Shown: piece by piece, positions 2-64,000 of the stretch
Layout of the letters: each line of letters begins with the position of its first letter
How positions within the stretch are numbered: the stretch's first letter is position 1
Assembly: GCF_000240225.1 (NCBI RefSeq)
Contig: NZ_AGUD01000011.1
Span: 1-64,000, forward strand
DNA length: 64,000 bases
Direction of reading: 5' to 3'
DNA from: Patulibacter medicamentivorans
Lineage (GTDB): Bacteria > Actinomycetota > Thermoleophilia > Solirubrobacterales > Solirubrobacteraceae
Notes under the pieces: model-generated
The model's database searches: none
What the model saw: the letters and a program-made list of their open reading frames with translations, nothing else
Told to the model about the DNA's origin: nothing
Position numbers and translations under genes: made by a program

Positions 2-274
2 CGCGCCGAGGGCGGCGCCGGCGTCCGCGGGGTGCAGGTGGCGCTCGCCCGGCGCGTGGCGGGCGGCCGCTGTCGCTTCGTCGCGCGCTCGGGCCGCGTC
101 ACCCGCCCGCGCTCCTGCCGGCGGCGGACCTACCTCCGCGCCCGGGGAACGGCTCGCTGGACGCTGCGGATCCGCCACCGCCTGCCGCGTGGGCGCTACG
201 TCGTCGCGGCGCGCTCCTACGACGCGCACCACCAGCGCAGCCGGGTCCGGACCCGCAGCGCGCGCGTCCGCTGA
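2..274 (+). CDS. C-terminal end of a secreted-type protein (5' truncated by window edge)
   Basis: The open frame runs in from the left edge with no start codon and stops with TGA at 272-274, so only about 90 C-terminal residues are present. They are very rich in Arg and Val and read as short beta strands ending in RTRSARVR. The tail resembles the C-terminal domain of the exported esterase at 31.3-32.9 kb, which has the same LPxGRYxVxxRxR pattern and also ends in an Arg-rich strand. This suggests an Ig-like appendage on an exported protein. The main domain lies outside the window, so no function can be given. Confidence 0.6.
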   Translation, partial: RAEGGAGVRGVQVALARRVAGGRCRFVARSGRVTRPRSCRRRTYLRARGTARWTLRIRHRLPRGRYVVAARSYDAHHQRSRVRTRSARVR

Positions 275-55974: not shown

Positions 55975-57201
55975 TCAGGCAGCGAGCGCCACCGCGTCGC
56001 GCTCCAGCAGCGTCAGGACCGAGCGGACGAACAGCCGGACGCCCATCGGCAGCGCGTCCTCGTCGATGTCGAAGCGCGAGTCGTGGTGGTCGGCGGTGAT
56101 CCCCTTGGCGACGTTGCCGGCGCCCAGCAGGACGAAGCAGGCGGGCGCCTCGCGCGCGAACGCGGAGAAGTCCTCGCCCGGCATCACCGGCGGCCGCTCG
56201 ACGACCGCGTCGGGGCCGAACAGCGCGCCGGCGGCCTCGGCGACGACGCCGGCGGTCGCCGGGTCGTTGACGACCGCGTCGTACCCCCGCACGTACTCGT
56301 AGTCGCAGGTGGCGCCGTGGGCGGCGCAGAGACCGGCGGCGACCTCGCCGATCCGCCGCTCCAGCAGGTCGCGGACCGCGGGGTCGAACATGTTCGTGCC
56401 GCCGCCGATCGTCGCCGTCGCCGGAATCACCCCGACCGAGCGGCCGGCGTGCAGCTCGGTGACGCCGACCACGGCCGGCTCCAGCGGATCGACCTCGCGC
56501 GCGACCAGGTGCTGCAGGTTGGTCACGATCTGGGCGGCGATCGCGATCGGGTCGATCGCGGCGTGGGGGGCGCCGATGTGGCCGGGGCGGCCGCGGACCT
56601 CGATCGTGAAGACGTCGCAGGCCGCCATCACGCGGCCGGGGTTGACCATCACGGTGCCGATCGGCAGCGGCGCCCACAGGTGCAGGCCGAGGACCCGGTC
56701 GACGCCGCGCATCACGCCGGCGGCGACCATCTGCGAGGCCCCGCCGGGCAGCGCCTCCTCGCCGGGCTCGAAGAGGAAGCGGACCTCGCCGGCCAGCTGC
56801 TCGCGGAGCCCGGAGAGGACGGTCGCGGCAGCGAGCAGGATCGCGGTGTGGCCGTCGTGGCCGCACGCGTGCATCACGCCGGGGGTCCGCGAGGCGAACG
56901 GCAGGCCGGTCTGCTCCTCGATCGGCAGCGCGTCGATGTCGGCGCGGACGGCGATCGTCGGACCGGGGCGGGCGCCGGCCAGGCGGCCGACCACCGCGGT
57001 CCCGACGGGACGCTCGACGGTGACGCCGGGCAGCGCCTCCAGCCGCTCCTGGATCCAGGCGGCGGTCCGCTGCTCCTCGAACGACAGCTCGGGGTGCTGG
57101 TGCAGGTGACGGCGCCAAAGGACCGCGGAGGGCGCGACCTGATCCACCAGCCGCTCGGTCTCGGTGAGCATCAGGCGCCAGGCTGCCAGTGATCTATCCA
57201 T
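55975..57201 (-). CDS. M20-family amidohydrolase (IAA-conjugate / hippurate hydrolase type)
   Basis: 408 residues: metal-binding HACGHDGH at about 104, HPELSFEEQRTAAW near the N-terminus, GxEDFSAFAREAP near the C-terminus and a central lid domain. The M20D group cleaves N-acyl amino acids, including hippurate and plant indole-acetyl conjugates. Within this block it could release an arylacetic acid from an amino-acid conjugate. The start is uncertain: ATG 57201 or ATG 57171, neither with a good ribosome site. Confidence 0.88.
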   Translation of the reverse strand: MDRSLAAWRLMLTETERLVDQVAPSAVLWRRHLHQHPELSFEEQRTAAWIQERLEALPGVTVERPVGTAVVGRLAGARPGPTIAVRADIDALPIEEQTGLPFASRTPGVMHACGHDGHTAILLAAATVLSGLREQLAGEVRFLFEPGEEALPGGASQMVAAGVMRGVDRVLGLHLWAPLPIGTVMVNPGRVMAACDVFTIEVRGRPGHIGAPHAAIDPIAIAAQIVTNLQHLVAREVDPLEPAVVGVTELHAGRSVGVIPATATIGGGTNMFDPAVRDLLERRIGEVAAGLCAAHGATCDYEYVRGYDAVVNDPATAGVVAEAAGALFGPDAVVERPPVMPGEDFSAFAREAPACFVLLGAGNVAKGITADHHDSRFDIDEDALPMGVRLFVRSVLTLLERDAVALAA

Positions 57202-57215
57202 CTGTCAAGCTGATG

Positions 57216-60761: not shown

Positions 60762-61541
60762 ATGTCCGATCCCCGCCTGAAGAACCTGCTCGACGGCCTG
60801 GCCGACGGATCGGTCCAGGTCGTCGACCTGACCCAGCCGCTGAGCGAGACGACGCCGGTGCTGGTCCTGCCCGACCCGTTCGCCAACACGCCGCACCTCT
60901 CGCGCAAGCGGCTCTCGCGCTACGACGCCGACGGCCCGGCGTGGGCCTGGGACGTGCTCGAGCTGGGCGAGCACACCGGCACCCACCTGGACGCGCCGAT
61001 CCACTGGATCACCGGCAAGGAGGGCGAGGACGTCGCCTCGATCCCGCCGGCGCGCCTGGTCGGGCCCGCCGTGGTGATCGACCGCACGGCGGCGGTCGCG
61101 GAGGACCCCGGCTACCTGCTGACGGTCGCCGACCTGGAGGCGCACGAGGTCGAGCACGGGCCGATCCAGCCCGGCTCGTGGGTGCTCTTCCGGACCGGCT
61201 GGTCGGCCCGCGCCAACGACGAGGCGGCGTTCCTCAACGCCGGCGCCGAGGGTCCCGTGACCCCGGGCCCGGACGTCGAGGCGTCGCGGTGGCTGGCCGA
61301 GCACCCGAACGTCGTCGGCTTCGGGGTCGAGACGGTCGGGATCGACGCCGGCGCGGCCGGCGGCTTCGACCCGGGCTTCCCCGTCCACAACTTCCTGCTC
61401 GGCGCCGGCCGCTACGGCCTCACGCAGCTGGCCAACCTCGATGCGCTGCCGGCCTCCGGCGCGCTGATCGTGGTCGCCCCGCTGAAGCTGGTCGACGGCA
61501 CCGGCAGCCCGTCGCGGGTGCTCGCCTTCGTCGAGCGCTGA
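60762..61541 (+). CDS. Cyclase-family (kynurenine formamidase-like) metal hydrolase
   Basis: 259 residues with the HxGTHxDxPxH metal motif (GEHTGTHLDAPIHW) and ETVGIDAGAAGGFDPGFPVHNFLL. The family hydrolyses N-formyl amines, lactones and isatin-like amides. It follows the hydrolase gene by 15 bp with GAAGGAG before its ATG. Confidence 0.87.
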   Translation: MSDPRLKNLLDGLADGSVQVVDLTQPLSETTPVLVLPDPFANTPHLSRKRLSRYDADGPAWAWDVLELGEHTGTHLDAPIHWITGKEGEDVASIPPARLVGPAVVIDRTAAVAEDPGYLLTVADLEAHEVEHGPIQPGSWVLFRTGWSARANDEAAFLNAGAEGPVTPGPDVEASRWLAEHPNVVGFGVETVGIDAGAAGGFDPGFPVHNFLLGAGRYGLTQLANLDALPASGALIVVAPLKLVDGTGSPSRVLAFVER

Positions 61542-61564
61542 GCCGCCGCGTGGCCCATTAATAC

Positions 61565-61610
61565 GTCAACTATTTTACGGGTTGACATCACTGGTCGAGC
61601 GTCCGAGCAT
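61565..61610 (+). promoter_or_regulatory. FadR-like operator and promoter
   Basis: GTCAAC-TATTTTACGG-GTTGAC (61565-61586) is a perfect 6-bp inverted repeat, 18 of 22 bases identical to the site at 63255. TTGACA (61582-61587), 17 bp, GAGCAT (61605-61610) forms the promoter. The predicted start is close to the leader ATG at 61618. Confidence 0.65.
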
Positions 61611-61617
61611 GGCGTCC

Positions 61618-61689
61618 ATGACGCTGCTCTCGCCCGACCGCGCTCCGCGCCCGACCCGAGTCCGACCCACGAGCGGGGGTCGGGCGTGA
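61618..61689 (+). CDS. Putative 23-residue leader peptide before the dehydrogenase gene
   Basis: ATG at 61618 begins a 23-codon Arg/Pro-rich frame (MTLLSPDRAPRP...SGGRA) that ends with TGA overlapping the GTG start of the next gene (61686-61689). It would be read from an essentially leaderless mRNA. Two arms in it can pair with the region around the downstream GTG. Confidence 0.5.
   Translation: MTLLSPDRAPRPTRVRPTSGGRA
61631..61686 (+). promoter_or_regulatory. Competing hairpins covering the dehydrogenase start
   Basis: CGCCCGACC (61631-61639) and CGCCCGACCC (61648-61657) are both complementary to GGGTCGGGCG (61677-61686), which holds the purine-rich start region and reaches the GTG. Ribosomes translating the leader peptide would open these helices. 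Confidence 0.5.
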
Positions 61690-62549
61690 GCGCCCCGGTC
61701 GTCGGCTGGATCGGGGTCGGCGAGATGGGCCGCCCGATGGCGGCCAACCTCGTTCGGGCCGGCTGGCGGGTCGTCGCCTTCGACCGCGACGACGAGCGCC
61801 TGGCCGCGGCCGCGGAGGCTGGGATCGAGGCCGCCGCCGACGCCGCGGCGGTGGTCGCGCAGGCCGACCGGGTCGTGACGATGCTGCGGACCGGCGCCCA
61901 GACCGAGCAGCTGCTGCTGGGCCCGGACGGGCTGGTGGCGGCCGCTGGCCGGCCGCTCGACGTGGTCGTGATGAGCACGATGGATCCGGAGTCGATGCAG
62001 CGGCTGGCGGTGGCGGCGGCCGCCGGCGGGGCGACGGTGCTCGACGTGCCGGTCAGCGGCGGCGTCCGCGGCGCCGAGGACGCGAGCCTCTCGGTGATGG
62101 CCTCGGGCCCCGCCGACGCGCTCGAGCGAGCGGCGCCGATGCTCGACCTGCTGGGGTCGCGGACCTACCGGCTCGGCGATCGCGCGGGGGCCAGCCAGGC
62201 GGCGAAGCTGGCCAACCAGGTGATGATGGCGGTGTCGATCGCCGGCACCTACGAGGGGCTGGCGCTGGCCCGCGACTACGGGCTGCGGGACGGGCCGGTG
62301 ATCGACGCGGTCTGCGCCGGCACCGGCGCCAGCTGGCCGCTCGCGCACTGGGACTGGATGCGCAGCCTGTGGGAGCAGTACGTGCCCGACAACGCGCTCG
62401 ACATCCTCGACAAGGACCTGAAGGCGGTGGTCGCCGCGATCGCCGAGCGCGGGGTCGAGATGCCGGTCACCGACGCGACCTTCCGGCGGCTCTCGACGCT
62501 CTGGTCGGCGGCCCGCGAGCAGGCCGCCGGTCAAGCCAGCTCGAAGTAG
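61686..62549 (+). CDS. 3-hydroxyisobutyrate-dehydrogenase-family NAD(P) oxidoreductase
   Basis: 287 residues from GTG 61686: Rossmann loop GWIGVGEMGRPMAANL, substrate-binding DVPVSGGVRGAEDASLSVM and catalytic Lys in AAKLANQVMM. The family oxidises beta-hydroxyacids. Transcription seems separate from the operon before it, with its own FadR-like operator. Its 3' end overlaps the convergent FadR-type gene by 19 bp. Confidence 0.9.
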   Translation: MSAPVVGWIGVGEMGRPMAANLVRAGWRVVAFDRDDERLAAAAEAGIEAAADAAAVVAQADRVVTMLRTGAQTEQLLLGPDGLVAAAGRPLDVVVMSTMDPESMQRLAVAAAAGGATVLDVPVSGGVRGAEDASLSVMASGPADALERAAPMLDLLGSRTYRLGDRAGASQAAKLANQVMMAVSIAGTYEGLALARDYGLRDGPVIDAVCAGTGASWPLAHWDWMRSLWEQYVPDNALDILDKDLKAVVAAIAERGVEMPVTDATFRRLSTLWSAAREQAAGQASSK

Positions 62550-63244
62550 CGGGCGAAGTACTCCAGATGTCGCCGCATCGCCGCCTCGGCCGCGGGCCCG
62601 TCCTGGGCCTCGACCGCCTCGACGACCGCTTCGAGGTGGCCGAAGAGCAGCTGCGGGTCGATCCCGCGGGCCTCGTCGCTGAAGCGGCGGAAGGCGGTCG
62701 ACGTCGCGTCGACGAATCCGATGATCAGCGGGTTGTGGGTGCAGTCGGCGAGCGCGGCGTGGAAGGCCAGGTCGGCGGCCAGCGCCGCGTCCGGGTCGAG
62801 CGGGGCGCCGGCGGGCCGTGGCAGCGCCGCCTCCAGCCGCAGCAGGTCCTCGGCGGTCCGGTGCTCGGCGGCCGAGGCGGCGCTCAGCAGCTCCAGCGCG
62901 TGGCGGACCTCGAACAGCTGGGCGTAGGTCAGCGTCCGCATGCTGAGCGAGAGCGAGATCACCTCGGCGACGCTGCTGCCGAGCGCGCGCAGCGACATCT
63001 CCGCCACCCGATAGCCGCCGGTGCGCCCGCGCGAGGAGACGAGCACGTGGTCGGCGCGCAGCGTCCGCAGCGCCTCGCGGGCGGTCGGCCGGCTGACGCC
63101 GAACATCGCGGCCAGCCGCTCCTCGCTCGGCAGCCGGTCGCCCGGCTTCAGCTGCCCGTCGAGGATCGACTGCTTGATGCTCGACGCGATCTGCTGGGGC
63201 GCGGACTGGACGGGCTGCGGGGCGCTGAACGGCGTGTCGGCCAT
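62531..63244 (-). CDS. GntR-family regulator, FadR/FCD subfamily
   Basis: 237 residues from ATG 63244. The winged helix is LPSEERLAAMFGVSRPTAREALRTLRAD; the FCD domain has an FEVRHALELLSAASAAEH and LAFHAALADCTHNPL pattern. It is divergent from the hydantoinase gene; the gap contains ATTGTAAACAATTTTAC, a good FadR/GntR-type site, and related sites precede the genes at 61.7 and 42.2 kb. Confidence 0.9.
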   Translation of the reverse strand: MADTPFSAPQPVQSAPQQIASSIKQSILDGQLKPGDRLPSEERLAAMFGVSRPTAREALRTLRADHVLVSSRGRTGGYRVAEMSLRALGSSVAEVISLSLSMRTLTYAQLFEVRHALELLSAASAAEHRTAEDLLRLEAALPRPAGAPLDPDAALAADLAFHAALADCTHNPLIIGFVDATSTAFRRFSDEARGIDPQLLFGHLEAVVEAVEAQDGPAAEAAMRRHLEYFARYFELA

Positions 63245-63254
63245 GGTCAAAATT

Positions 63255-63300
63255 GTAAACAATTTTACAGGTTGACAGGCAAATTCCTCCTGCCGATGAT
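63255..63300 (+). promoter_or_regulatory. FadR-like operator and promoter of the hydantoinase gene; leaderless
   Basis: GTAAAC-AATTTTACAG-GTTGAC (63255-63276), TTGACA (63272-63277), 17 bp, GATGAT (63295-63300). The predicted start at 63306-63307 coincides with the ATG at 63307, so the mRNA would be leaderless. Confidence 0.68.
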
Positions 63301-63306
63301 GGCCCG

Positions 63307-64000
63307 ATGAGCTACGCGATCGGGATCGACGTCGGCGGGACCTTCACCGACTTCGTGGTCGTCGACGAGCGCGACCGCTCCTACTGGGCGCACAAGTCGC
63401 CGAGCACGCCGGCCGACCCCTCCGAGGGCCTGCTGCGGGGCCTCGGCGAGATCGCCGCGGGGCTCGGGCTGGCGCCGCGGGAGTTCCTGGCCCGGATCTC
63501 GCTGATCGTCCACGGCACGACGGTCACCACCAACGCCGTCCTGACCGGCCGCGGCGCCCGCACCGGGCTGCTGACCACCGAGGGCTTCCGCGACGTGCTG
63601 CAGATGCGGCGCGGCGTCCGCAGCCGCGAGCACCTCTACGACAACACCTACGTCGCCCCGCCGCCGCTGGTCCCGCGCGAGCGGCGGCTGCCGGTGCCGG
63701 AGCGGATCGACGCCGCCGGCGCGGTCCGCGTCCCGCTCGACCGCGAGGCGCTGGCCGCCGCCGTCCGCCAGCTGGTCGCCGACGACGTCGAGGCGCTGGC
63801 CGTCTGCTTCATGCACGCCTACGCCGACGATCGCCACGAGCGCGAGGCGCGGGCGGTGGTCGAGGAGCTGGCGCCGGACCTGTTCCTGTCGGTGTCCTCC
63901 GAGGTGCTGCCCCAGATCCGGCTCAACGACCGGGTCAGCACGACGGTGATGAACGCCTACGTCGGACCGGTCCTGCGCCGCTACGTCGAGCGGCTTGTCG
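63307..64000 (+). CDS. hyuA: Hydantoinase/oxoprolinase subunit A (3' truncated by window edge)
   Basis: The frame stays open from ATG 63307 to the right edge (231 residues visible; complete proteins are about 700). The N-terminal ATPase-like phosphate loop GIDVGGTFTDFVV and HGTTVTTNAVLTGRGARTGLLTTEGFRDVLQMRR are diagnostic of HyuA. With a HyuB partner it hydrolyses cyclic amides such as N-methylhydantoin or oxoproline using ATP, or carboxylates ketones in the acetone/acetophenone carboxylase branch. HyuB is presumably just outside. Confidence 0.92.
   Translation, partial: MSYAIGIDVGGTFTDFVVVDERDRSYWAHKSPSTPADPSEGLLRGLGEIAAGLGLAPREFLARISLIVHGTTVTTNAVLTGRGARTGLLTTEGFRDVLQMRRGVRSREHLYDNTYVAPPPLVPRERRLPVPERIDAAGAVRVPLDREALAAAVRQLVADDVEALAVCFMHAYADDRHEREARAVVEELAPDLFLSVSSEVLPQIRLNDRVSTTVMNAYVGPVLRRYVERLV

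What the first reader, a model, noticed from the sequence alone, without database searches (positions are those of the whole stretch)
61618..61689. Leader peptide plus competing hairpins controlling a dehydrogenase gene
The 23-codon leader carries two copies of CGCCCGACC, either of which can pair with GGGTCGGGCG covering the start of the next gene. Ribosome passage through the leader would free the GTG. This is a compact translational switch not assignable to a known riboswitch or attenuator family.
Basis: partly seen in the sequence, partly recalled or inferred. Interest (0 to 1): 0.65.

Follow-up and report, generated by a model that had tools for sequence, protein, structure and literature searches.

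The report
Displaced gene start posing as leader
The short 'leader peptide' in front of this enzyme gene is most likely the gene's own beginning, knocked out of frame by a small insertion that also made the hairpin, so it looks like a translation-coupled restart or a sequence error rather than a new regulatory switch.

Summary
The anatomy is real: a 23-codon ORF (61618-61689), two CGCCCGACC copies, a complementary arm over a GTG start, and a GTGA stop/start overlap. Only copy 2 pairs at equilibrium; copy 1 pairs only if copy 2 is blocked. Fold energy is ordinary for this GC-rich genome, although a 16-pair inverted repeat is uncommon (5 in 220.8 kb). Comparison changes the interpretation. The ATG lies 7 nt after TTGACA-17-GAGCAT, where transcription should begin, so initiation is probably leaderless. 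In three syntenic orthologues the same promoter and ATG open the dehydrogenase itself, in frame. In this genome, 8 of 8 other sites matching the strict promoter pattern open a long ORF; only this one opens a 23-codon ORF. Aligned to the nearest orthologue, the window carries about 40-47 extra bases, not a multiple of three, that contain the hairpin's 3' arm. So the 'leader' is best read as the displaced N-terminus. The enzyme is then made by termination-coupled restart at GTG, if the sequence is right; a one-base error in this metagenome assembly would instead leave one continuous leaderless gene. Leaderless small ORFs coupled through RTGA are known in mycobacteria. No conservation supports an evolved switch.

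The parts
61565..61586 (+). GTCAAC-N10-GTTGAC inverted repeat overlapping the -35 box: probable operator; TTTTACNGGTTGACA shared with the promoter of the hydantoinase gene
   Evidence: sequence; two exact matches in the window, 61573-61587 and 63263-63277; shuffles mean 0.11 for up to 3 mismatches; operator role inferred from the FCD/GntR gene at 62531-63262
61582..61610 (+). promoter TTGACA-17-GAGCAT; predicted start of transcription at or next to the ATG
   Evidence: same layout in L031, L032, L033 with 6-9 nt between -10 box and ATG
61618..61689 (+). 'leader' ORF, 23 codons (MTLLSPDRAPRPTRVRPTSGGRA); read here as the out-of-frame ancestral N-terminus of the dehydrogenase, leaderless start
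61631..61639 (+). CGCCCGACC copy 1; not paired with the arm at equilibrium, pairs with it fully only if 61640-61667 is blocked
61640..61657 (+). 5' arm of the main hairpin, contains CGCCCGACC copy 2 (61648-61656)
61653..61692 (+). approximate segment absent from the nearest orthologue L031; contains the 3' arm of the hairpin and shifts the frame
   Evidence: alignment to L031; 24 of 2000 shuffles score as well for the part before it
61675..61679 (+). GGGGG, weak Shine-Dalgarno-like stretch 6 nt before the GTG
   Evidence: by eye
61677..61693 (+). 3' arm of the hairpin, covers the GTG
61686..62549 (+). dehydrogenase gene (6PGDH / 3-hydroxyisobutyrate dehydrogenase superfamily), GTG start, 287 aa
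   Evidence: PF03446 E 1.9e-41, PF14833 E 4e-18; no NCBIfam equivalog cut-off reached

Best explanation
The ATG at 61618 is the ancestral, leaderless start of the dehydrogenase gene. An insertion in the variable N-terminal segment, carrying an inverted copy of the sequence before it, made the hairpin and broke the frame together. What is left of the old N-terminus now reads as a 23-codon ORF ending in TGA, and the enzyme is made from GTG 61686. Because that GTG is buried in the hairpin, its translation should depend on ribosomes that start at the leaderless ATG, melt the hairpin, terminate at the overlapping TGA and restart (GTGA coupling). Shown: anatomy, orthologous in-frame start, promoter spacing, extra segment relative to L031. 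Inferred: transcription start, insertion history, coupling, and that the assembled sequence is correct.
For: Window plus L031, L032, L033 share TTGACA-17-(-10)-6..9-ATG, and in the three relatives the ATG runs in frame into the Rossmann motif; a 53% homologue, L037, also starts in frame from ATG. Of 9 strict promoter-ATG matches in the genome (control pattern 0), the other 8 of 8 open ORFs of 200 to more than 501 aa. The first 32 nt after the ATG align with L031 in the same frame (24 of 2000 shuffles as good) and the following gap covers the hairpin's 3' arm; ATG to GGCTGG is 86 nt here against 39, 39 and 57. The dehydrogenase is otherwise intact with strong codon bias (GC3 0.97) and 66-74% identity to the three. 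GTG is occluded and mostly freed when the leader up to 61676 cannot pair.
Against: N-termini of L032 and L033 do not align significantly with the window (1147 and 661 of 2000 shuffles as good), so the insertion is inferred from one orthologue. Codon scores do not favour either frame in 61618-61686 (-6.8 bits in the leader frame, -7.1 in the dehydrogenase frame). No transcription or translation data. The genome is a 353-contig assembly at 93% completeness, and a one-base error would explain the frame break.
Confidence: 0.5

Rival explanations
1. Assembly or sequencing error: the gene is one continuous leaderless ORF from ATG 61618 with a long variable N-terminal extension, and a one-base indel in a GC-rich hairpin region (for example the GGGGG run) splits it. 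There is then no leader peptide at all.
For: Orthologues are continuous from the same ATG. The dehydrogenase frame is open without a stop back to 61542, so a single-base change of frame between 61618 and 61686 would join it to the ATG. The region is GC-rich and hairpin-forming, where short-read errors are known to concentrate (recalled). Other strict promoter hits open long ORFs.
Against: No survey of errors elsewhere in the assembly was made; the extra 40-47 nt and hairpin need explaining anyway; short-read consensus errors are rare (recalled); sequencing platform unknown.
Confidence: 0.33
2. Evolved regulatory switch: leader translation, perhaps stalling, toggles two competing hairpins to control the dehydrogenase.
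For: With 61640-61667 covered as by a ribosome, copy 1 pairs fully with the arm and keeps the GTG region mostly closed. Least accessible of 34 positions.
Against: Absent in all three syntenic orthologues; copy 1 unused at equilibrium; no cognate-codon run; no terminator-like site or Rfam match.
Confidence: 0.12
3. The ATG ORF is not translated and the GTG is used independently through the GGGGG stretch; the leader is a chance ORF.
For: A start-proximal Shine-Dalgarno-like GGGGG exists at 61675-61679; coupling geometry occurs at 32 of 1000 random sites in M. tuberculosis (PMC4633059).
Against: GTG and its upstream region are 88% paired; promoter places the 5' end at the ATG, and an ATG at a 5' end was sufficient for initiation in mycobacteria (PMC4633059 abstract).
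Confidence: 0.05

Closest known systems
Leaderless 'coupled' small ORFs of mycobacteria (Shell et al. 2015, PMC4633059)
   Same: RTG at the expected transcript 5' end, ORF of 5-50 aa, TGA stop overlapping the next gene's RTG (RTGA)
   Different: Here orthologues show the same ATG as the start of the main gene, so this one looks like a displaced N-terminus; no transcript or ribosome data
Translational coupling by RNA unfolding / reinitiation (reviewed in PMC12548453; e.g. phage f1 genes VII-IX with -4 spacing)
   Same: -4 overlap, hairpin over the downstream start, upstream translation predicted to open it
   Different: Upstream ORF is not an independent gene; not shown experimentally
Ribosome-mediated attenuators with leader peptides
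   Same: Short ORF and alternative pairings
   Different: No cognate-codon run, no terminator-like site, not conserved
Template-switch mutations that create hairpins (PMC8794818)
   Same: A reverse-complement copy placed next to its source gives a near-perfect stem
   Different: Inferred here from one orthologue alignment, not from an ancestral reconstruction

Membership tests
Leaderless RTGA-coupled small ORF | RTG codon at the transcription start | not testable with these tools
   Only promoter spacing (7 nt after the -10 box) supports it
Leaderless RTGA-coupled small ORF | ORF of 5-50 codons | tested here: met
   23 codons
Leaderless RTGA-coupled small ORF | TGA stop forms an RTGA overlap with the next gene's start | tested here: met
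   GTGA 61686-61689 (overlap 4)
Leaderless RTGA-coupled small ORF | Coupled architecture kept in related species (reported for some cases, not required of all) | tested here: not met
   L031, L032, L033 have one continuous ORF from the same ATG
Ribosome-mediated attenuator | Run of regulatory codons in the leader | tested here: not met
   Arg 5 and Pro 4 of 23, scattered (counted by eye from the translation)
Ribosome-mediated attenuator | Terminator alternative | tested here: not met
   0 terminator-like sites in 61400-63400 by a simple consensus scan
Known riboswitch or RNA element (Rfam 15) | Covariance-model match | tested here: not met
   61400-61900: only one match at E up to 1, below its gathering score and on the other strand
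Conserved RNA switch | Pairing kept across relatives | tested here: not met
   Repeats and arm absent in the three orthologues

The most novel reading that the evidence does not exclude
A translation-coupled leader caught at birth: one template-switch-like inverted duplication inside a leaderless gene's N-terminus at once created the hairpin, broke the frame, and made expression of the enzyme depend on a new coupled small ORF, which suggests a route by which leaderless RTGA-coupled small ORFs arise.
Probability: 0.2. Interest if true: 0.5.

Novelty: new member of a known kind. Interest (0 to 1): 0.25.

Why it matters
If the sequence is right, it suggests how coupled leaderless small ORFs could originate: from the N-termini of genes that lost frame. 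It also warns that a leader peptide plus hairpin called from one GC-rich metagenome sequence can be a displaced or mis-assembled gene start, which a look at orthologous starts and promoter spacing reveals quickly.

Tried and rejected
Riboswitch/RNA family: rejected. Transcription attenuation: no terminator-like site. Coding-frame test by codon scores: uninformative. Unusual stability: rejected, about 13-15% of genome positions fold as well. A second leaderless ORF with ATGA overlap in the same genome (MFS transporter, L062) was followed as support for a genome-wide class; its leader ATG is not kept in L079 and L080, so it was not used. Programmed frameshifting was considered and set aside (no slippery site seen by eye). 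More orthologues: none beyond the same few loci in 8 genus, 146 family, 232 order, 399 class and 396 phylum genomes (sets overlap; cut-off 1e-60 except); L034/L038 lacks its 5' end and could not be used.

Corrections: one search read L037 on the wrong strand; redone. One search printed minus-strand loci L079, L083 and L088 unturned; L079 was redone, the other two were not reread. The 34 positions were picked by hand (mostly from the 41 ORFs, several doubtful ones dropped, 61618, 63307 and 59874 added), and one (59874) is not a start codon.

Full report
What is there. ATG 61618 opens a 23-codon ORF whose TGA overlaps GTG 61686 of a 287-aa dehydrogenase. The dehydrogenase matches PF03446 and PF14833 but reaches no NCBIfam equivalog cut-off, so its substrate is open. 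CGCCCGACC stands at 61631 and 61648, and a perfect 10-nt inverted repeat joins copy 2 to 61677-61686. With a bulge the stem extends to 16 Watson-Crick pairs, 61640-61657 with 61677-61693.

Is it more than chance. By energy, no: 383 of 2557 window positions and 839 of 6248 positions in other contigs of the genome fold as well over 83 nt. As an inverted repeat it is uncommon: 85 perfect 10-nt repeats with gap 3-40 in 220.8 kb, of which 5, this one included, extend to 16 pairs; none of 3000 base shuffles of the region did. The GTG region is the least open of 34 hand-picked positions (0.12), and 3.7% of 600 random positions are as closed. The two-hairpin competition is weak: at equilibrium only copy 2 pairs (1.0 against 0.0); copy 1 takes over if 61640-61667 is covered as by a ribosome, and the GTG is mostly unpaired only when the leader up to 61676, or the GTG region itself, is kept from pairing.

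What it is. The promoter gives the clue. TTGACA 61582-61587, 17 nt, GAGCAT 61605-61610, then 7 nt to the ATG. Three orthologues with the same neighbours downstream (FCD/GntR-like gene and hydantoinase-like gene, recognised by eye from the translations) have TTGACA-17-GACACT or GATAGT and 6-9 nt to an ATG which is the start of the dehydrogenase: MTPLNDPPRPPVVGWIG, MASMSEANHGPVVGWVG, MAAPSEQQATADALSGPGVGWIG. A more distant homologue, L037, also begins in frame. The L031 record is titled Conexibacter sp. and L032 Solirubrobacterales bacterium; L031 and G036:C23 agree in contig length and coordinates, so the window's family is probably that of Conexibacter.

The genome itself agrees. The strict pattern TTGACA-17/18-NANNNT-5..9-ATG occurs 9 times, the reversed control 0 times. 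The other 8 of 8 open ORFs of 200 to more than 501 aa; only 61618 opens a 23-aa ORF. In the pooled set of 27 distinct matches to three patterns, two of them looser, 20 open ORFs of 75 aa or more and 7 open short ones, 2 of these with an RTGA overlap to a long ORF (61618 and L062). The L062 case is not kept in two relatives.

How the frame was lost. Between the ATG and GGCTGG the window has 86 nt, the orthologues 39, 39 and 57; only the window's length is not a multiple of three. The first 32 nt after the ATG align with L031 in the same frame (24 of 2000 shuffles as good); the gap that follows holds the hairpin's 3' arm, an inverted copy of the sequence just before it. This fits an inverted duplication of the template-switch type, which is known to create hairpins (PMC8794818, outline with abstract and opening text read). 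L032 and L033 do not align significantly there, so this history rests on one orthologue.

How it probably works. If the sequence is right, ribosomes load at the leaderless ATG, whose first bases are mostly unpaired in the fold, open the hairpin, stop at TGA and restart at the overlapping GTG. That is ordinary translational coupling (PMC12548453, abstract and section 8 read). Leaderless small ORFs coupled through RTGA are described in M. tuberculosis: 23 of 220 against 32 of 1000 random sites (PMC4633059, abstract and two sections read). If one base is missing from the assembly, the gene is simply one leaderless ORF. I cannot separate these without reads; codon scores do not help (-6.8 against -7.1 bits).

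Verdict. It is not shown to be a dedicated switch, and its kind is known.

Noticed in passing
63240-63310: Hydantoinase gene has the same layout, TTGACA-17-GATGAT-6-ATG 63307, with the palindrome AAAATTGT-AA-ACAATTTT upstream; the shared TTTTACNGGTTGACA at both promoters suggests one operator for the FCD/GntR regulator at 62531-63262.
   Followed up: partly
L033:2649-2749: Four copies of the imperfect palindrome GGTTGACGAAAGACAACC, two on each strand, upstream of the orthologous dehydrogenase; 13 matches with up to 1 mismatch in that genome, control pattern 0, several in opposed pairs. Nature unknown.
   Followed up: partly
L062:1536-1568: MFS-transporter-like gene with a 10-codon, promoter-proximal ORF ending in an ATGA overlap; not kept in two relatives.
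   Followed up: partly
57169-57208 (-): Another probable leaderless start, 30 nt inside the longest ORF, so the start by longest ORF (57201) is probably too far upstream.
   Followed up: no
contig C343, 67318-67866 (L019, L040): A second, 35% identical dehydrogenase-like stretch lies just beyond the window at the contig's end.
   Followed up: no
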